Assembly (NCBI GenBank): GCA_910574455.1
Contig: CAJSYZ010000009.1
Coordinates: forward strand, 496,001 to 560,000
DNA length: 64,000 bases
Source: Trichaptum fuscoviolaceum
Lineage: Eukaryota; Basidiomycota; Agaricomycetes; Hymenochaetales; Trichaptaceae
Reading direction: 5' to 3'
The position numbers were made by a program, and so were the translations under genes. The notes beneath the pieces were generated by a model. The model worked only from the letters and a program-made list of their open reading frames with translations. It was not told the origin of the DNA and did not search any database. Shown here one piece after another: positions 37,401 through 47,661 of the stretch (positions are counted from its first letter, which is position 1; each line of letters starts with the position of its first letter).

Positions 37401-37505
37401 CAAGGCGTCGAGGTCCATTAGCATGTTTTAATCTTACTTTCTCATAATTTTCATCGAAGAGCGCGGCTTCGATTTAGTCTCGGAAGCGCTCACCTGAAAG
37501 GGCAG

Positions 37506-37877
37506 CACCTAAGACTCCCGGTATCCAGAACCTTGTTAGCCGGTAGCCTTGGCTCAAGGCTGCTGGCTAACTAGGTTCTGATACACCTATATTACTATAC
37601 TGTGTGCCATCCCGTCTGTTAAAAGGGACTTCGTCATTCACAGACCTGCTCACCGGGCCTAGCTTGACCGAGGACCCTGGGGGCTGGCCTCGGCGACCGC
37701 CGTAAGGGTCTGTCCTGCGTGTCGCGCGCGCGCGCCGTGCCTCGGACCTTGCCGCCGCGCCTCCCACGCGCCCACAACGCGTCGTCGCCGTCACCACACC
37801 CTTGCTCGCCGTCGCCGACAGCGAGCACGGCCGTCTCGCTCAATTCTTGTCCGTTTGGCTTCGTTTTTTTGCATTAT
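37506..37877 (+). repeat. Left terminal inverted repeat of the class II element
   Basis: This arm matches, as reverse complement, 47653-47332 continued by 40597-40547 across the retrotransposon. Identity is high with scattered substitutions. Similarity fades after GCATTAT. The arm contains a 64-base terminal palindrome (37521-37584) and a GC-rich tract with CGCG runs (37730-37800). Confidence 0.88.
37521..37584. repeat. Palindrome close to the element terminus
   Basis: GAACC..GTTAGCCGGTAGCCTTG pairs with CAAGGCTGCTGGCTAAC..GGTTC around a three-base loop (GCT), and the pairing extends outward to GTATC/GATAC. The same structure recurs in the right arm near 47575-47638. It may be a transposase recognition hairpin (inference). 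Confidence 0.8.
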
Positions 37878-40546
37878 GCATTAAATTCATAGCAGAATGC
37901 AATTGTGAATAGAAAAACAATAAATATATTTATTTGTCTATTAAATTATACATCAAGAAATCTCTCTGTGCTGTCCTTGTTGTCAGTCAGCTGTCCCTGC
38001 CATCCAACTGTTTCGGGTTCGCTTCTATGCATATTTCATGCATCTCCGCCTGCCCAACTTCAGCCGCCCTTGGGTCGCCCCATTCCGCCCACAAATGCTT
38101 CATTCTACCCCTGATCATTTGGTGTTGCTGTCAGCAAAGGCTGGGGAACAAGAGGGACGAGAGCTCGGAGGGCGTGCCGCTTGATGGGGGCCTCTGGTTC
38201 GGAGAGCAGGGCAAGGACACCCGCTGCTGATGTTTGTGTTCGCGCTACCATAGCGGGTTGGAGAGGAGGGGGATGGAAATGAGGAGAAAGGAAAGGACTT
38301 GTGCGACAAAATTGACCGTGGCTGCAGGCACATGCACCGGGCAGTCTCTGCCGCAGGCCCTTGCTGCTGGGTACTCCAGAATCCACATGCAGCCTCCCCC
38401 GCCAACAATCCGAAGCCCCGCAGCCATTGGAATCTTGCTAGAGTGGTCTGCACTCGAAGCTATTGCAGCGATGCAAGAGGTGCGTCGCTCAGCGCCGTTG
38501 AAGGAAGCCGTAGAATAGTGGTTGCGCAAGGCGGCAACAGACCACGGGAGATATTCAAGCCTCTGCGGCTCGCATGTGTGACGGGCGCTGGCAAAGACGT
38601 CCGTCGGCGCAGACGTGTCTGTGGTGTCCGTCGAGTGGTATCCACAGCACAGACGTGTCTGTGGTGTCTGTTAGGGATAAAGAGGCATCTATGGCAGGCC
38701 ATTAGCTTACAGCAAATGATAGCATAAAAAAATAGATAACTTACCACGTTAATTTGAGGCCTGGAGGCCATCCGTGATGGACACGGACAACGTTGAACGC
38801 AAAAAGACGACGTCCACGCGCGTTCAACGTCGCCCGGAAGTTGCCAAATGTGGCAACTGAAGCATCTCCAAGCACATTTCGTGCCCAGAAACACTTCAGC
38901 AGCGCATCTGATACTCAGGCACGCTATGTGATATGCAAGTGCTGTACAATATACATTGATCCTGATTTTATTGGTATTTATTGCTTAGTCCGATATGATT
39001 TGGTGAGGCAAACACTGACTCTACAAGTGCTCATTTCACTGTTTTCGGAATAGAATATTTATTTGATCTTGTAAATTTGTGATCTCTTTTGCATTCAAGA
39101 GTACTTGTAATATTGAAGCAGATTCAAGAAGAATTACAGCTGCAGGTGAGCTACAATATGGTGATCTCGATTTTGTGCACTCGAATGCATGAGATCAAGC
39201 TAAACTCACCTGAAACCCACGGACCTCAACTACATTTGAGCACTGACAACAAGTCCAGTTAGTGGAATTCTGTCAAAACTTCTAAAACGGTCATCTACTA
39301 TCTCTTCTTGAGTGTCACATATCTTGCAGAATTTATTAATGAGGGTAATGTATGTCTATTCAGTAAAGAACATGTATTGTACATGATTTTATGCCAAAAG
39401 TACTAGTTTTGAGCAATGTTTAGATGCTATCGGAGTACTACAGTCTCTACACACTCTGAAACTTTTTTAGTGAGTATTAATACACCCATATTAGATCTTC
39501 ATGAAGTTTGAAAGACATCCATGCAAGCGCTATGCTTAAACAAATCAAAAACATATGCATTAGCATGCATACAGGCTGCACTTCAGCACTCGCAGCTTAT
39601 TTGTGAGCCCAATTTAGCCCATTATGTTATGCAACTTCGCAGCTACACTCTATATTATATCATTAAGATGCCTAATGCATGTGCCTGATATAAAGCACAA
39701 TACAAAGATGAGCAGTCAATATGTTTTGAATGCTCAAAAATAAAGAAAAGTAAAACATACCTAATTTGGACGCGCATTCTCACGTTTGGAGACAACGCGC
39801 GGCCTCGTCGCTGTCGTCGTTTGGGCCTTGCTCACTGTCTTACACTCCTCCTCCACCCCATAAAAGAGCTTCGTATGAACAAGCACACTGCAAGTAAGTT
39901 TTATTAACCTTCTCTACTCTAATATGTGCTAATAGTTGTCTTTAGTAGGTGATATGCTAGCCGATAGGCTCACCCGTGCACCCAAGGTGCTGAAACAACT
40001 CATTCAGCAACGATGAGCTTGCCAGGCCCCTCCAAACGCCCTCGCAATCTTGCAAGAAATCCGCAACAGAGGCTCTATCTTCGTCGGCGCTATGTACCAC
40101 GCGGTCTCTCCAGCAGAGGCCAAGGATGCGATCAACCACCATTGGCATGTCATGCACGGCAGGAAGAGTGCAACACACAAAATGTCCGCCTGGCGCGTCT
40201 CGGCGCTGAAGCGCGACCGCGATGGACTCTGCGGGAAGACGACTTTGAGGTGCAGAGTCACAGCAACGACGATGGCGAGATGTGCACCCGCTTCTCCTGC
40301 CTGCTGCTGAGACATCTGTTGTGGTCGGCGGTGTTGCCCCTTTCATGACACACGTTGTTGGACAAGTCTTTGACACCTTTGCTTGGTTATCCCTGACCAA
40401 TGCAACATCCCAGGACAAGTACGCGCTCCGCCATGATGTGGGCATCGCAGCTGTAGAACTGGTTGCTCTTTCTGCTGGCACCATTGCACTATGTAGTAGA
40501 TAATTTTATTTTACTATTGCAATATAATCTAAACATTAAATTACAT
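37878..40546. other. Internal region of the class II element, no transposase recognised
   Basis: About 2.7 kb with several GC-rich overlapping frames but no protein family I can name. Around 38612-38670 a 21-base unit containing the palindrome CAGACGTGTCTG occurs twice, 35 bases apart. A possible two-exon start (ATG at 39875, intron of GTAAGT..TTTAG type) leads into codons reading LQEIRNRGSIFVGAMYHAVS near 40048, but stops interrupt it. The 38.9-39.8 kb part is AT-rich. The centre may hold captured host fragments or an eroded transposase. Confidence 0.45.
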
Positions 40547-40597
40547 ATAATGCAAAAAAAACGAAGCCAAACAGACAAAAATTGAGCGAGACGGCTG

Positions 40598-41427
40598 TGT
40601 CGAGATCCCAGGCCCCTTTTCTCATTTCCCGCACTTTCCCGCCAAGGATCCCGACATGAGCAGACAATTCCGCGGGGAGAATCCCGCCATTGGATTCCCC
40701 GCGCGAAACCCCTTTCCCGACTCGCACGACCCCCCGCAAGATCCCCCGCTCACGTGACCTATCCCGCACCACCGTCCCGACCACCACGCACGCATACACA
40801 CATTCATTTACGACGACCCGCCACGGCACACGTACATTCACTTATCAACATACGCTCATTAATCCGTTAGTACCTCAAGGTGACGACCTGCAACAGTCTG
40901 GCATACCTAGTCTGGCTAGTCGCGGCCCCGGACCGGACGCTGACGTCCACGGACAGGCCGTAGCCATCTGGAGAGACGGGATAGACATGCCTAGCAGTGC
41001 GGTCGTAGCATGTATCGTTTGTAGTAGATAGGTGCGCATTGCGCAAGGACACTTAGCGTAGATTAACTATACAGTCTTTACGAAGTAGATAAATAGCTGT
41101 AGGCATCGTAAGGAGCACCCCACTTTTGACCTCTTGTGGAGTGCTTCCTTAGGTGCGATCTCTCTCTTTTCTCCTGTGTAGTTAGTTGCGCAATACTTAC
41201 TTGTGGAGTGCTTCCTTAGGGATCCGCTTACTTGACGTTCAAGCAGTGAAGAGTCCTAGCTGGCCTTGAGAATCCCGCGACGCGCCTGGATAGAATCCCG
41301 CGCGTTTCCCGCCTGAATTCCCACGCTCGTTTCCCAGTCGCGAATCCAGATTCCCGAACGCGGGTTCTTGTCGCGAATTCCAGTTTCCCGAAACTGTTTC
41401 CCGCTACAATTCCCGACGGTCGTAACA
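40598..41427 (+). repeat. 5' LTR
   Basis: 830 bases, starting TGTCGAGATCCC and ending GGTCGTAACA. The 3' LTR is 828 bases and differs by single-base losses (GTGCGGTCG versus GTGCGGTG near 41000, and CGTTTCCC versus CGTTCCC near 41330). A TATA-like GATAAATA at 41088-41095 lies about 30 bases before ACTTTTGACCT (41122-41132), the probable start of R. Confidence 0.95.
41122..41132 (+). promoter_or_regulatory. Predicted transcript start / self-primer of the retrotransposon
   Basis: ACTTTTGACCT here is the exact reverse complement of AGGTCAAAAGT at 41430-41440, just two bases inside the 5' LTR border. In Tf1 of fission yeast, the first 11 bases of the mRNA fold onto the primer site and prime reverse transcription. 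The same length (11) and position (about 30 bases after a TATA-like box) support that reading here. Confidence 0.7.
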
Positions 41428-41429
41428 TT

Positions 41430-41440
41430 AGGTCAAAAGT
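41430..41440 (+). promoter_or_regulatory. Primer-binding site complementary to the element's own LTR
   Basis: AGGTCAAAAGT begins two bases after the LTR terminus. It pairs over all 11 bases with 41122-41132 in the LTR. No TGG start expected for a tRNA-primed site is present at this position. Confidence 0.7.
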
Positions 41441-41516
41441 CCTGGCTCACCGCCGCTCGGACTCGACACCCTCACGCTCTTTACTTCTACCCCCGCACCC
41501 GTACCGCCGACCAGCG

Positions 41517-42726
41517 ATGTCATCCCACCAGGAATGGGGAGGACTCGCAGATACCTTCGCTTTCCCGTCCCCGAGCTCCTCGATGGAGGAAGACAAACTC
41601 CAGCCCATCCTTGATCGCCTCGACACCCTCGAAAAACGCTACTCCAAGTTAGTCAACGAACACAATCAGGTTCAGAACACTGTCGCCCAGCTCAAGCACG
41701 CCAACCAGGCGTTAGAAGCCCAAATCGCGAGCCAGCCCGCCTCCCCGTCTGGGGGTGGAGCAGGGCTCAAGATGAAGCTTCCCGACACCTTCGAAGGCGA
41801 ACGAGCCAAGCTGGAAAACTGGATTCACCAGATTAAGCTCTACCTGTTCGGGACAACACCCGGGGCTGGACGAAACCCGCAAGGTCGCATTCGCCCTGAT
41901 GCTACTGCGGGGACCGGCGCAAGACTGGGCACGACCCATTCTAGATCGACTCCAGGACATCCCGACACCGCCAGAAGCCGCCAGCCTGGAGGCCCTGTTC
42001 GCCGCCCTTCGCGCCTCGTACGGAGAAATCGATGCAGACAAAGCCGCAGCCGACAAGCTGATGCGCCTACGCCAGACAGGAACGGTCGCCGAGTTTGCGT
42101 CGCAATTCCGTGCCCTCCAAGCCCTCACCGGGTGGCCCAAGGACGCGACGACGGATGTCATCTACCTCGACATGTTCCGGAAGGGACTCAAAGACCAGGT
42201 TCGCCAGCACATCGCCAGCACAGAGGCGAAGGATATGAAATTCGATGCCTACGTCAACTGGGTTTCCGAGACGGACGAGAAGCTAAGGCTCGCACACGCC
42301 TATGGACCAGTATCAAAGCCAGCGGCTACGCCCCGAAGCAATCCCGGCACCACTAGTTCAGCTCCGCGTACGATCCCGACTGCGGGCGCAAGCTCGACGA
42401 AGGATCCCAACGCAATGGAGATTGACAGGGTGCGCCGGGAGCGCAGGAGTAAGGGACTATGCTACTACTGCGGAGAGAAAGACCATTTGGTGAGCGATTG
42501 CCCAACGCGACCGCCATCCCGAAACCTAAAGGCGACGAAATCCACGTCCCCGTCGAGCCCATCGCCCCCCGCGCTCCAGTCGTTTGAAGAAACGCTCAAA
42601 CGTATGGCGGAACAGTACGTCCAGAATGTGCAGCAGTCCGTGCTACAGAACGCATTCGCCGCCATGACGCCCGCCGCCAAGAACGTTCACAATCCCGAAG
42701 CCCCGCCCCCAGCGGATTTTCAGTAG
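41517..42726 (+). pseudogene. gag: gag of the chromovirus, interrupted by a +1 shift
   Basis: The ATG at 41517 opens a frame with an N-terminal coiled coil (LQPILDRLDTLEKRYSKLV..). It leads into the capsid region KMKLPDTFEGERAKLENWI. After GGGG at 41862-41865 the coding potential jumps by one base to the frame starting LDETRKVAFALMLLRGPAQ. That frame continues through the capsid (FRALQALTGWPKDATTDVIY) to a CCHC zinc knuckle CYYCGEKDHLVSDC near 42460, and stops at 42726. A one-base gain in the G run is the simplest explanation; programmed shifting or an assembly error are alternatives. Gag would form the particle that packages the RNA. Confidence 0.8.
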
Positions 42727-45700
42727 GGTCGTATTGCTCAGTCGCGCCCTATACGACCCAACCGCCCTTGTGGCCGAAGAACTCTCTTAATAATGGTCCC
42801 TTGTATTTAACCATCTCTACAATAGACCGTCGTCTTCGACGACATTTGAAGTTCCCGGTACAGGTTAGCGACGGAAAAACGGATGCCTTAGCCACAGTAA
42901 TGTTAGACAGCGGTGCGTCGGGAACTTTCATAAATTCCCGCTACGTTTCGCGACACGGACTCCAGACTCGGGAATTGGTAATCCCGATACTTTTGCGCAA
43001 CGCGGACAATTCCCCGAACGCGATTGGACGCATCACCAAGGAAGTAGTCCTCAACGTCGAGATGAAGGGACACTTAGAACAGTTGACCATGGCCGTCGCG
43101 GATATTGGCGACGACGATATTATCATGGGGATCGACTGGTTGCGGCACCATAACCCAACCATTGACTGGACCAACGATGTGGTCGATCTCAACCGCTGCC
43201 CGCCCCAGTGTGACAACCAGCAACGCCTGGTCCCGCTTCCCCGCCTCGCCATAGCAGAAGAAGTCGAGACCCCCTGGGGGCCCGACAGGACCCAGGCCGA
43301 ATGGGAAGCTGTCCCACCAGGATTTCGGTACTCAGAAAAATATTGGGACCAGTACCACGACGCTGAATCCTACTTCGTCACGACGGACGACCATTTCGCG
43401 TACAAAATTGCCGCCTCGTACACCCACTCCCAGGCCATCGCGGAGAAGTCAGCAGTGAAGGAAGGCGAGAAAACCTTCGAGGAACTAGTTCCCCCCGAAT
43501 TTCGTGAGTTTGCCGACGTTTTCTCGAAAGTTGAATCCGAAAGGCTCCCACTACGCAAGCCGTATGATCACGCCATAGATTTAGAACCCGGGAAGGTTCC
43601 CCCGTACAGCAAAATCTATCCGTTGGCCCCGGCCGAACGCGACGCCCTTCGCGAATTCGTTGACGAAAACCTGCGCAAAGGGTACATACGACCTTCGAAA
43701 TCCCCTGCAGCGGCTCCCGTCTTCTTTATCAAGAAAAAGGACGGAACCTTGCGCATGGTAGTCGATTACCGACGACTGAACGATATCACGGTCAAGAATC
43801 GATACCCGCTTCCCCTCACGATGGAACTCGTAGACGCACTGCAAAAGGCGAAGGTTTTCACGACGTTAGATTTGCGATGGGGCTACCACAACGTGCGACT
43901 GAAGCAAGGCGACGAGTGGAAGGCCGCATTTCGGACTCAGGCAGGACACTTCGAACCAACGGTGATGACATTCGGGCTCACGAATGCCCCGGCGACCTTC
44001 CAGCATATGATGAACGATATCTTCAAAGATCTCATTGGAGTATACGTGATCATCTATCTTGACGACTTGCTGATCTTTTCCGAAGATGAATCGCAGCACG
44101 AGGAACACGTACGGGAAGTCCTTAAGCGGCTGCGCGAAAACGACTTGTTCTGTAAACCCGAAAAGTGCAAATTCAAACAGACTTCCGTCGAGTATCTCGG
44201 AATGATTATTTCGCAGGGAAAGGTGGCGATGGATCCCGCCAAGGTACAGGCGGTCCTCGACTGGCCTACCCCGAAAAAGGTGAAAGACATTCAAGCCTTC
44301 CTCGGGTTCGCGAATTTCTATCGACGCTTCATTCGGGATTTCTCGCACATCGTCAAACCGCTCACGACGCTGCTGAAGAAGGACGTTCGCTGGGCCTGGA
44401 CAGAAAACCAGCAGTTCGCCTTCGACTATCTCAAGCGCATGTTCACGACCGCCCCCGTCCTGATGATGCCAGACATGTCGCGACAATTCATCGTGGAATG
44501 CGACGCCTCTGATTTCGCGACCGGCGCGGTCTTGTCCCAGGAAGGCGACGACGGGCTGATACATCCGGTCGCCTTTTTCTCGAAATCCCTCAACGATGCG
44601 GAACGCAACTACGAGATTTACGACAAGGAGCTACTCGCGATTATTCGAGCTCTGGACGAGTGGCGACATTATCTCGAAGGTGCGAGTCATAAACTCGATA
44701 TCGTGTCTGACCACAAGAATCTGCTATATTTCTCTGAATCCCGAACGCTGACGCGACGCCAAGCCCGGTGGAGTCTGTTCCTCACCCGCTTCGATTTTAC
44801 GATTCGCCATCGCCCAGGGCGACTCGGGGGCAAACCCGACGCCATGTCACGACGCGTCGATCTTCAACCCGAAGGCGAAGACAACACGGGACGGACCCTC
44901 TTGACCCCCGAAATGTTTCGACTAAAGGCAATTCGTCGGGGAATGACGCAGGTACACGGGGATCAGGCCCTCCTACGACGCATTCGTAAGTCAGATCAAT
45001 ATGAAGACGAACTGGTGGACGCGATCGAGCTGGTCAAGTCCAAGGCGCCTCGAGTCCTGACCAAGGAACTTGAGGACTGGAGCACCGAAGAAGGCCTCAT
45101 TCTGTACCAGGGTAAGGTTTACGTCCCGAAAGACGAGACCATTCGCCGGGATGTGGTGAAGACTTACCACGACAGTCTCCCCGCCGGACATCCTGGACGT
45201 TGGAAAACGTTTGAGATGGTAAGCCGCAACTACTGGTGGCCCGGGATGTCTAACTTCGTAGAACGATACGTTTCGGGATGCGATACCTGTGCACGCACGA
45301 AGAACCGATCCCAACGCCCGGTAGGACTCCTGCAACCGAACGAAATCCCGCAGGGCCCCTGGCAGGCGATTTCGTGCGATTTCATCACCCAGCTCCCCCG
45401 ATCTGAGGATTACGACGCAATTTTCGTGGTGGTCGACCGTCTCACCAAGCAAGCGCATTTTATCCCGACCACGTCTGATGTCGATGCACCGGAAACTGCA
45501 GAACTCTTCCTGCAACACGTCTGGAAGCTGCACGGAACCCCCCGCCAGATCATATCCGACCGCGGACCACAGTTTGTCGCGCAGTTCATGAAAGCCCTTT
45601 TTTCCCGACTCGGTATCAAGGGTACCACGTCGACTGCGTATCACCCGCAGACGGATGGGCAAACCGAAAGGGTAAACCAAGAGCTGGAACAATATTTACG

Positions 45701-46658
45701 GGCTTTCATAGATACACGACAAGAAAACTGGGCCGGATTACTCCCGATGGCAGAGTTCGCGCACAACACGAAAGCGCACGCGGCAACACGACAATCCCCG
45801 TTCGCGCTCGTCTACGGCTACAATCCCGAATTCACGATTGCCCCGAGCGACGGCCTGTCCACGGTCCCCGCCGCGGACGCACGACTACAGGAGCTTCAGC
45901 AGGCACAGGAAGAGGCAAGAGCGGCTTTGGAGGTTGCGGCAGAGCGCATGAAGCAGCACTACGATCAGGCCAGGAACGAGGCCCCGCAGTACGCAGTCGG
46001 GGATAAAGTATGGCTCGAGGCGACGAACGTTCGGCGACCGGGAGCGCGCAAATTATTACCGAAACGACTAGGGCCGTATAAAGTGAAGGCAAAGCTAAGT
46101 GACCTCACCTACGAACTCGAACTCCCCGCGTCGCTGAAGATTCATCCCGTATTTCACGTATCGCTGCTCTCGCCATACCACGAAGACGACATTCCCGGTC
46201 GAACGCAACCCCCGCCGCCCCCAGTCGAAGTGGAAGGAGATCTGGAATACGAGGTGGAAGAGGTACTGGACGCTAGACGGTTTAGACGGAGGTTTGAATA
46301 TTTGGTACGATGGAAGGGATATTCGAGCGCGGAAGATACATGGATTCCCGCAAAGGATATGGGTAATGCAAAGGCTAAAATTCGCAGTTTCTATCGAAAA
46401 CACCCGGACGCCCCTCGAGAAGTCAACGCTATCGAGCTCTGTGACCTGAGCAAGATTCAAGCTTGGCGCCCCGGAGTTGCGCCTTTGGAGGGGGGTAATG
46501 TCGAGATCCCAGGCCCCTTTTCTCATTTCCCGCACTTTCCCGCCAAGGATCCCGACATGAGCAGACAATTCCGCGGGGAGAATCCCGCCATTGGATTCCC
46601 CGCGCGAAACCCCTTTCCCGACTCGCACGACCCCCCGCAAGATCCCCCGCTCACGTGA
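42727..46658 (+). CDS. pol: pol polyprotein: protease, RT, RNase H, integrase, chromodomain
   Basis: A single open frame runs from the gag end to 46658. Counting from a TTG at 42768, the protease motif is LDSGAS (residue ~47). The RT has the YLDD box at ~430-433, the RNase H has ECDAS at ~577, and the integrase has its HHCC finger (HDSLPAGH..CDTC). The integrase core has D871, D931 and E967, with exactly 35 residues between the last two. The C-terminal chromodomain (EVEEVLDARRFRRRFEYLVR, then WKGYSSAEDTWIP) can target heterochromatin. There is no ATG before the protease, and the frame is open across the gag end, so expression as a gag-pol fusion by -1 shifting is likely. The last ~53 codons lie inside the 3' LTR. 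All catalytic residues are present. Confidence 0.95.
46487..46498 (+). promoter_or_regulatory. Polypurine tract
   Basis: GGAGGGGGG followed by TAA lies directly before the 3' LTR (TGTCGAG at 46499). This is the standard site for plus-strand priming. It is also translated, because the pol frame runs through it. Confidence 0.8.
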
Positions 46659-47326
46659 CCTATCCCGCACCACCGTCCCGACCACCACGCACGCATACAC
46701 ACATTCATTTACGACGACCCGCCACGGCACACGTACATTCACTTATCAACATACGCTCATTAATCCGTTAGTACCTCAAGGTGACGACCTGCAACAGTCT
46801 GGCATACCTAGTCTGGCTAGTCGCGGCCCCGGACCGGACGCTGACGTCCACGGACAGGCCGTAGCCATCTGGAGAGACGGGATAGACATGCCTAGCAGTG
46901 CGGTGTAGCATGTATCGTTTGTAGTAGATAGGTGCGCATTGCGCAAGGACACTTAGCGTAGATTAACTATACAGTCTTTACGAAGTAGATAAATAGCTGT
47001 AGGCATCGTAAGGAGCACCCCACTTTTGACCTCTTGTGGAGTGCTTCCTTAGGTGCGATCTCTCTCTTTTCTCCTGTGTAGTTAGTTGCGCAATACTTAC
47101 TTGTGGAGTGCTTCCTTAGGGATCCGCTTACTTGACGTTCAAGCAGTGAAGAGTCCTAGCTGGCCTTGAGAATCCCGCGACGCGCCTGGATAGAATCCCG
47201 CGCGTTTCCCGCCTGAATTCCCACGCTCGTTCCCAGTCGCGAATCCAGATTCCCGAACGCGGGTTCTTGTCGCGAATTCCAGTTTCCCGAAACTGTTTCC
47301 CGCTACAATTCCCGACGGTCGTAACA
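46499..47326 (+). repeat. 3' LTR
   Basis: 828 bases, nearly identical to 40598-41427. It ends GGTCGTAACA, after which the target duplication GGCTG and the rest of the class II right repeat resume. Confidence 0.95.
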
Positions 47327-47331
47327 GGCTG

Positions 47332-47653
47332 TGCTCGCTGTCGGCGACGGCGAGCAAGGGTGTGGTGATGGCGACGACGCGTCGTGGGCGCGTGGGAGGC
47401 GCGGCGGCAAGGTCCGAGGCACGGCGCGCGCGCGCAACACGCAGGACAGACCCTTACGGCGGTCGCCGAGGCCAGCCCCCAGGGTCCTCAGTCAAGCTGG
47501 GCCCGGTGAGCAGGTCTGTGAACGACGAAGTCCCTTTTAACAGACGGGATGGCACACAGTATAGTAATATAGGTGTATCAGAACCTAGTTAGCCAGCAGC
47601 CTTGAGCCAAGGCTACCGGCTAACAAGGTTCTGGATACCGGGAGTCTTAGGTG
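47332..47653 (-). repeat. Outer part of the right TIR of the class II element
   Basis: The reverse complement matches 37506-37827 closely, including the terminal palindrome. The inner part of the same repeat lies at 40547-40597, on the other side of the retrotransposon. Confidence 0.88.
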
Positions 47654-47661
47654 AAGGGCAG

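What the first reader, a model, noticed from the sequence alone, without database searches (positions are those of the whole stretch)
37506..47653. Nested mobile elements: a chromovirus inside the terminal repeat of a long-TIR class II element
Outer ends CACCTAAGACTCCCGG / CCGGGAGTCTTAGGTG have an 8-bp duplication AAGGGCAG. The Gypsy element lies inside the right repeat with its own GGCTG duplication. Joining 40597 to 47332 restores a match to the left repeat. This gives a clear order of events, and a split repeat probably immobilises the outer element.
Basis: seen in the sequence. Interest (0 to 1): 0.75.

Follow-up and report, generated by a model that had tools for sequence, protein, structure and literature searches.

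The report
Retrotransposon nested in a cap-swapping transposon
In a mushroom-type fungus, a recent retrotransposon has jumped into one end of an older, dependent DNA transposon whose non-coding cargo also turns up between the ends of other transposon families, which suggests that such passengers can change the enzyme that carries them.

Summary
A Ty3/Gypsy chromovirus (40598-47326, target duplication GGCTG) lies inside the right terminal repeat of a class II element (37506-47653, target duplication AAGGGCAG). The rejoined arms match at 363 of 372 positions. Nesting itself is ordinary: 2 of the 12 other complete copies found also have an arm split by a later insertion.

The outer element is a non-autonomous member of the KDZ (Kyakuja-Dileera-Zisupton) superfamily. 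One 8.67-kb copy with the same ends carries a KDZ transposase gene. "Immobilised" is not supported: the outer 322 bp of the split arm are intact, longer than the whole repeats (139-241 bp) of KDZ elements shown to move in Cryptococcus.

Beyond the finding: the terminal repeat is modular. The outer ~149 bp ("cap") comes in types A and B, each identical in some copies to the cap of a transposase-bearing copy. The inner ~224 bp and the 2.67-kb cargo are shared, the cargo up to 99.2% identical across cap types. The cargo tree rejects one origin of the A-capped copies (p 0.00017). A third, more distant cap type also carries the cargo. The cargo has probably changed transposase families by exchange of ends.

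The parts
37498..37505 (.). target site duplication AAGGGCAG, left
37506..37877 (+). left terminal inverted repeat of the outer KDZ-type element (372-373 bp)
37506..37654 (+). cap A: outer ~149 bp of the TIR; the 33 fixed differences to cap B lie in columns 6-149 of the arm alignment
37655..37877 (+). inner TIR module (~224 bp), shared by cap types A and B
37878..40550 (.). interior (passenger cassette) without recognised coding: 3 frames of 157-182 aa scanned, no Pfam match above cut-off; no Rfam family above its cut-off
38433..40023 (.). core of the interior, 78-81% similar at 16 dispersed loci that show no match to the A, B or C arms
40551..40597 (-). inner end of the right TIR, left of the Gypsy insertion
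40593..40597 (.). Gypsy target site duplication GGCTG, left
40598..41427 (+). 5' LTR of the chromovirus (830 bp)
41430..41440 (+). putative primer binding site AGGTCAAAAGT, complementary over 11 nt to ACTTTTGACCT at LTR position 525 (41122-41132): self-priming suggested
41250..42726 (+). gag region, open in two overlapping stop-to-stop frames (41250-42356, 41776-42726); Retrotrans_gag and zinc knuckle in the second
42588..46658 (+). pol frame, 1356 aa stop to stop: protease, RT, RNase H, integrase, SH3_Tf2-1, chromodomain (runs into the 3' LTR)
46499..47326 (+). 3' LTR (828 bp)
47327..47331 (.). Gypsy target site duplication GGCTG, right
47332..47653 (-). outer 322 bp of the right TIR, with its complete cap A (47505-47653)
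47654..47661 (.). target site duplication AAGGGCAG, right

Best explanation
A non-autonomous KDZ-superfamily DNA transposon (about 3.41 kb without the insert) inserted at 37498 with an 8-bp duplication, moved by a transposase supplied in trans by an element like the 8.67-kb copy on C9 (L010), which has the same ends. Later a chromovirus that is now common in this genome inserted into the inner part of the right TIR and duplicated GGCTG. The outer element belongs to a family whose TIRs are modular: an outer ~149-bp cap that follows a transposase lineage, then an inner ~224-bp module shared between lineages, then a shared passenger cassette without recognised coding. The cassette has passed between cap types, most likely by ectopic gene conversion or double crossover through the shared inner modules. 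Shown: nesting, order, KDZ membership of the same-ended transposase-bearing copy, cap/cassette discordance. Inferred: trans-mobilisation, cap specificity of the transposase, and the recombination mechanism.
For: Arms, duplications and LTRs. Copy L010: TIRs 98% to the window's, TSD ATTTTTAT on both sides, KDZ Pfam PF18758 at 8.5e-27 and 1.8e-45 on two neighbouring frames, which read as one protein of about 690 residues across three introns chosen by eye, then stop (a fourth intron is presumed); the eight best of 1173 relatives are KDZ proteins of Hymenochaetales at 45-51% identity (order recalled). Modular TIR: 33 fixed A/B differences, all in columns 6-149, none in columns 150-398, over 23 of the 26 arms of the 13 pairs. 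Shared cargo: the interior of A-capped L011 is 99.1% and 99.2% identical to B-capped L016 and L018, while the caps of L011 and L016 differ at 36 of 146 columns. Caps of L011 are identical to those of L010, and caps of L016 to those of the transposase-bearing B copy. One clade of A-capped interiors rejected, AU p 0.00017, lnL difference 77.8. Third cap type C on L024 and L025 with the same core at 85-89%; its outer 142 bp recur (84-87%) at both ends of 5 paired loci that each contain a KDZ match and have 7- or 8-bp duplications in 5 of 5.
Against: No transposition, binding or expression assay. L016, one of the two B copies with the A-like cargo, has no normal duplication and sits between inverted flanks, so its history is abnormal; L018 has an exact duplication but one arm is split. 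The inner module is not uniform: some B arms (L015, L017, L018) are only 88-90% like that of L010. Caps of L024/L025 are only 84-87% like the nearest transposase-linked ends found, so no direct donor for type C is in hand. Transposase genes A and B are similar (77-79% in DNA over the matched parts), so one enzyme may act on both caps. The B-type KDZ gene is interrupted today (its halves at C10:2384218-2385735 and C10:2363518-2364972).
Confidence: 0.85

Rival explanations
1. The split terminal repeat has immobilised the outer element.
For: Only one copy of the composite is present among the 46 TIR matches.
Against: 322 of 372 bp of the arm, with the complete cap and terminus, remain. Active Cryptococcus KDZ elements have 139-241 bp TIRs (PMC12810828, passages). 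The LTRs carry no substitution, so there has been little time for a composite to move.
Confidence: 0.2
2. The 3.4-kb element is an ordinary internal-deletion derivative of the transposase-bearing element, with no exchange between families.
For: TIRs are 98% identical to L010.
Against: The interior shares nothing detectable with L010 beyond the TIR, and the same interior at about 99% lies between B caps that differ at 25% of positions.
Confidence: 0.06
3. The cassette stayed in place and the caps moved: one cap was overwritten by ectopic conversion, then the two arms of the element were equalised by conversion between inverted repeats.
For: In 4 of 11 copies with both arms aligned (L009, L010, L016, L022) the two arms are closer to each other than to any other arm of their type. 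Both ends of each copy carry the same cap type.
Against: In the other 7 of 11 copies the arms are not closest to each other, and in L015 and L017 they differ by 26-27 bases. It needs two steps per switch. The end product is the same as with cassette transfer, so present data do not decide.
Confidence: 0.35
4. The inner module is alike in families A and B because it is under functional constraint, not because it was exchanged.
For: It is present at both ends and has a second, nearby copy at one end of each transposase-bearing copy.
Against: The cargo between the modules, without recognised coding, is also shared at about 99%, and the five C-type loci lack the module among the 38 matches, so it is not needed by all KDZ ends.
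Confidence: 0.1
5. The outer element belongs to another 8-bp-TSD superfamily (hAT, P, Merlin).
For: 8-bp duplications occur in those groups too (recalled).
Against: The copy with the same 382-bp ends encodes a KDZ transposase and none of the 8 frames scanned from it matched another transposase family at E 0.1 or better.
Confidence: 0.02

Closest known systems
KDZ1, KDZ2, KDZ3 of Cryptococcus neoformans (PMC12810828, passages seen)
   Same: KDZ transposase, long TIRs (241, 139, 169 bp), about 9-11 kb, 8-bp (KDZ1) or 4-8-bp (KDZ2, KDZ3) duplications
   Different: the window element has no recognised transposase; its TIR is 372 bp and made of two modules; its cargo is shared with other cap types
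Zisupton (KDZ superfamily; described in PMC12730594, abstract and passages seen)
   Same: TIRs and 8-bp target duplications
   Different: assignment to Zisupton rather than Dileera or Kyakuja was not tested by phylogeny
Kyakuja of Laccaria bicolor (PMC12730594, passages seen)
   Same: KDZ transposase, ends 5'-CA..TG-3'
   Different: Kyakuja has 7-bp duplications and no TIRs there; here mostly 8 bp and long TIRs
Fungal chromoviruses, Tf1-like and others (PMC2864245, PMC4600332, passages seen)
   Same: pol with chromodomain, TG..CA LTRs, a stretch just after the 5' LTR complementary to LTR sequence
   Different: the clade was not determined by a tree; self-priming is inferred from 11 complementary bases only
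Pack-type elements and MITEs (recalled)
   Same: passenger DNA between transposon ends, moved in trans
   Different: here near-identical passenger DNA is found between ends of different families of one superfamily

Membership tests
KDZ DNA transposon (non-autonomous member) | KDZ-type transposase in an element with the same ends | tested here: met
   L010, TIRs 98%, PF18758 on two frames
KDZ DNA transposon (non-autonomous member) | 8-bp target duplication (4-8 bp reported in Cryptococcus) | tested here: met
   11 of 13 complete pairs exact, 1 with one mismatch, 1 without
KDZ DNA transposon (non-autonomous member) | mobilised by the KDZ transposase | not testable with these tools
   needs an excision or insertion assay
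Zisupton subgroup | transposase groups with Zisupton rather than Kyakuja or Dileera | not tested
   TIRs and 8-bp duplications fit Zisupton as described in PMC12730594; no tree was made
Kyakuja subgroup | 7-bp duplication and no TIRs, as described for L. bicolor | tested here: not met
   8-bp duplications and 373-382 bp TIRs
Ty3/Gypsy chromovirus | protease-RT-RNase H-integrase order with a chromodomain, between LTRs | tested here: met
   one 1356-aa frame with RVP_2, RVT_1, RNase H, H2C2, rve, Chromo; LTR pair
Ty3/Gypsy chromovirus | short (here 5-bp) target duplication | tested here: met
   GGCTG on both sides; that 5 bp is usual is recalled
Tf1-type self-priming | site next to the 5' LTR complementary to the 5' end of the transcript | tested here: inconclusive
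   11-nt complement inside the LTR at position 525; the transcript start is unknown

The most novel reading that the evidence does not exclude
A passenger cassette without recognised coding survives in this genome by changing its ends: it is carried between the terminal caps of at least three KDZ families, exchanged at a boundary about 142-149 bp from the terminus, so that a parasite of transposons can switch host transposase when one autonomous lineage decays (the B-type KDZ gene here is interrupted). The 'terminal inverted repeat' would then be two functional modules: a transposase-specific cap with a long hairpin, and a recombination adaptor.
Probability: 0.5. Interest if true: 0.6.

Novelty: new variant of a known kind. 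Interest (0 to 1): 0.38.

Why it matters
Nested transposons are everyday, and the nest itself would not surprise a specialist. The modular ends are more useful: they give a natural experiment on which part of a KDZ end is read by the transposase, and on how non-autonomous elements outlive their helpers. The boundary at about 149 bp makes directly testable constructs possible.

Tried and rejected
Coding potential in the outer interior: no stop-to-stop frame over 182 aa; the three interior frames scanned gave no Pfam match above cut-off. Mismatches between distant copies (window against L043-L045) show no consistent 3-base rhythm in 18 windows; the window at 40353-40472 is an exception (27, 14, 8 by phase), so a short conserved exon there is not excluded. 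No Rfam family above its cut-off (best E 0.27). The interior as part of the transposase-bearing element: rejected. A giant cargo-carrying KDZ element (35.26 kb, C10:2351736-2386995): it is a B copy swollen by repeats that interrupt its KDZ gene, among them a Gypsy-like pol frame, label by eye. The dispersed core as a gene family: three frames from L043-L045 gave no Pfam match above cut-off. Literature: four searches on KDZ, one on self-priming and two for exchange of TIRs between families; the last two listed 14 and 4 papers, none on TIR exchange by title or start of abstract. Such papers may use other words, so this is weak evidence of novelty. The first attempt to align C-type ends used an end string that most ends lack and is void; one search replaces it. 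The first splice of the L010 gene had one acceptor a base off and did not read open; one search moved it.
Full report
Observation. The outer element runs 37506-47653 between two copies of AAGGGCAG. Its left TIR is 37506-37877. The right TIR is cut in two by a Gypsy element at 40598-47326 that is flanked by GGCTG. Rejoined, the right arm matches the left at 363 of 372 bases, with a score of 694 against a best of 11 in 200 shuffles. The LTRs (830 and 828 bp) differ by two single-base gaps and no substitution, so the Gypsy insertion is recent. The closest fully aligned relative of the outer interior is 95.7% identical (L014; L009 is 97.5% over 2060 bp), so the outer family is older.

The inner element. 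The 1356-aa pol frame holds protease, reverse transcriptase, RNase H, integrase and chromodomain: a chromovirus. The gag region is open in two overlapping frames, with the Gag domain in the second, so Gag of this copy is not one frame. Its LTR query has 40 listed places, all at 99-100%, the window's own among them (only 40 of 715 candidates were scored). Just after the 5' LTR an 11-base stretch is complementary to the LTR at position 525, as in self-priming elements (PMC4600332, passages); the transcript start is not known.

The outer element. The genome (59.09 Mb, 12 contigs, unnamed, completeness not given) has 46 matches to the left arm. I resolve them into 13 complete pairs: 8 with the window's ends (type A) and 5 with other outer ends (type B), plus partial pieces. 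11 of 13 pairs have exact 8-bp duplications, one has a single mismatch, and one (L016) has none. One A copy, L010 (8672 bp), carries a transposase gene with the Pfam KDZ domain. With three introns chosen by eye its exons read as about 690 open residues, then stop; a fourth intron is presumed. The eight best of 1173 relatives come from Sanghuangporus, Phellopilus and Schizopora, 45-51% identical. A host gene in the window, a KRE6/SKN1 homologue, is closest to an unnamed metagenome protein (99%) and, among named sources, to Phellopilus and Coniferiporia (67%), Fomitiporia (65%) and Sanghuangporus (63%). The host is therefore probably a member of the Hymenochaetales (order of these genera recalled). 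L010 is the only full-length match to its own body; the B-type body is 66-79% similar in pieces. 11 of the 13 pairs, the window's among them, carry instead an interior of about 2.5-2.7 kb without recognised coding and with nothing detectable from the L010 body.

Is it immobilised? The insertion is at TIR position 323-327. The outer 322 bp stay whole. Cryptococcus KDZ1-3 move with TIRs of 241, 139 and 169 bp and lengths of about 9-11 kb (PMC12810828, passages); the composite is 10.15 kb. Two other copies of the 13 also have a TIR cut by later insertions with 8-bp duplications and TAGGG..CCCTA or TAGAGC..GCTCTA ends (L020 and L018/L019; hAT-like by eye). Splitting of these long TIRs is thus not unusual, and nothing shows that it stops movement.

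Modular ends. In an alignment of 23 of the 26 arms (left out: the two arms of L020/L021 and the split arm of L018), the 33 columns that separate A from B all lie in 6-149, none in 150-398. The two transposase-bearing copies differ at 36 of 146 columns in the cap but at 10 of 223 and 6 of 222 in the inner module, while their transposase genes are 77-79% alike over the matched parts. So the cap follows the transposase lineage, and the inner module does not. The inner module is not uniform, though: B arms of L015, L017 and L018 fall to 88-90% of L010. The interior ignores cap type: L011 (A) is 99.1 and 99.2% identical inside to L016 and L018 (B), whereas L011 and the window copy, both A, are 95.3%. 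The sliding comparison of L011 and L016 drops to 68-83% only in about the outer 150 bp on both sides. On the interior tree of 10 copies (10 of the 11 A/B carriers; L020/L021 left out, L009 in part) the A-capped copies as one clade are rejected, p 0.00017, and at least two cap changes are needed; the caps themselves split A from B with 100/100 support. The groups were named by caps, but I had seen the identity table before the test.

Third cap. L024 and L025 have ends CACCTAATGAGCC. L024 has the duplication AAAAATCT; L025 has TCCAGCTC if one base is counted to the duplication. They carry the same core at 85-89%. Their outer 142 bp match at 84-87% both ends of five loci of 9.9-19.4 kb that each include a KDZ match; all five have duplications, 3 of 8 bp and 2 of 7 bp, and in one of them (C7) the right end is of a slightly different type. 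A further set of places matches positions 12-183 at 70-74% (not followed). The five loci lack the inner module among the 38 matches. A boundary near 142-149 thus recurs in another family, although the direct donor of the C caps was not found.

Mechanism. The simplest account is that a cassette bounded by inner modules has replaced the body of a differently capped element by ectopic gene conversion or double crossover through the modules, giving a passenger with new ends that then moved with the other transposase. Overwriting of caps followed by equalisation of the arms gives the same product; arms are closest to their own partner in 4 of 11 copies. What is shown is the discordance; the recombination path and the cap specificity of the enzymes are inferred.

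Where the cassette came from. 16 further loci hold the core at 78-81% and show no match to the A/B or C arms; three were read (L043-L045). Against L043 two of them are 96-99% and most others 77-83%, and in many the match ends near positions 1424 and 3370 of L043. The core shows no consistent coding rhythm and is of unknown nature.

Verdict. The nest is real and ordinary; the outer element is a new member of the KDZ group; the exchangeable ends make it a variant worth following.

Noticed in passing
L016, L049, L050 (G000:C1:3240126-3246897): A B-type KDZ copy without a normal duplication: its two flanks are inverted copies of each other right up to the KDZ ends (99.4% over 1266 bp including the TIR). 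The flank is itself a dispersed repeat that also occurs as inverted pairs elsewhere.
   Followed up: partly
window:38433-40023 and L043, L044, L045: A core without recognised coding has strongly conserved blocks (7-11% mismatch at 39033-39272 against 32-42% at 39393-39752) and is dispersed at 16 loci without matches to the A, B or C arms. Next to it in L044 and L045 lie fragments that look like WD40 repeats of a coatomer subunit, by eye only.
   Followed up: partly
L020 (C9:1015766-1020449) and L019 (C4:602875-609165): Two more KDZ TIRs are split by insertions with 8-bp duplications (CTGCTCAC, GTCCCGTC) and hAT-like ends (label by eye).
   Followed up: partly
G000:C10:2351736-2386995 (L022, L046, L047, L048, L023): A 35.26-kb B-type KDZ copy swollen by nested elements that interrupt its transposase gene. 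It also contains two palindromes of about 3.0 and 2.25 kb that are related to each other at about 84%.
   Followed up: partly
window:37521-37584 (cap A), also cap B: Each cap contains a near-perfect inverted repeat of about 60 bases that would fold into a long hairpin (RNA parameters).
   Followed up: no
window:41250-42726: The gag region of this chromovirus copy is open only in two overlapping frames, while pol is one long frame.
   Followed up: no
L010:449-672 and 754-975; C10:2386326-2386540: Both transposase-bearing KDZ copies carry a second copy of the inner TIR module close to the first at one end, starting at the cap boundary.
   Followed up: partly
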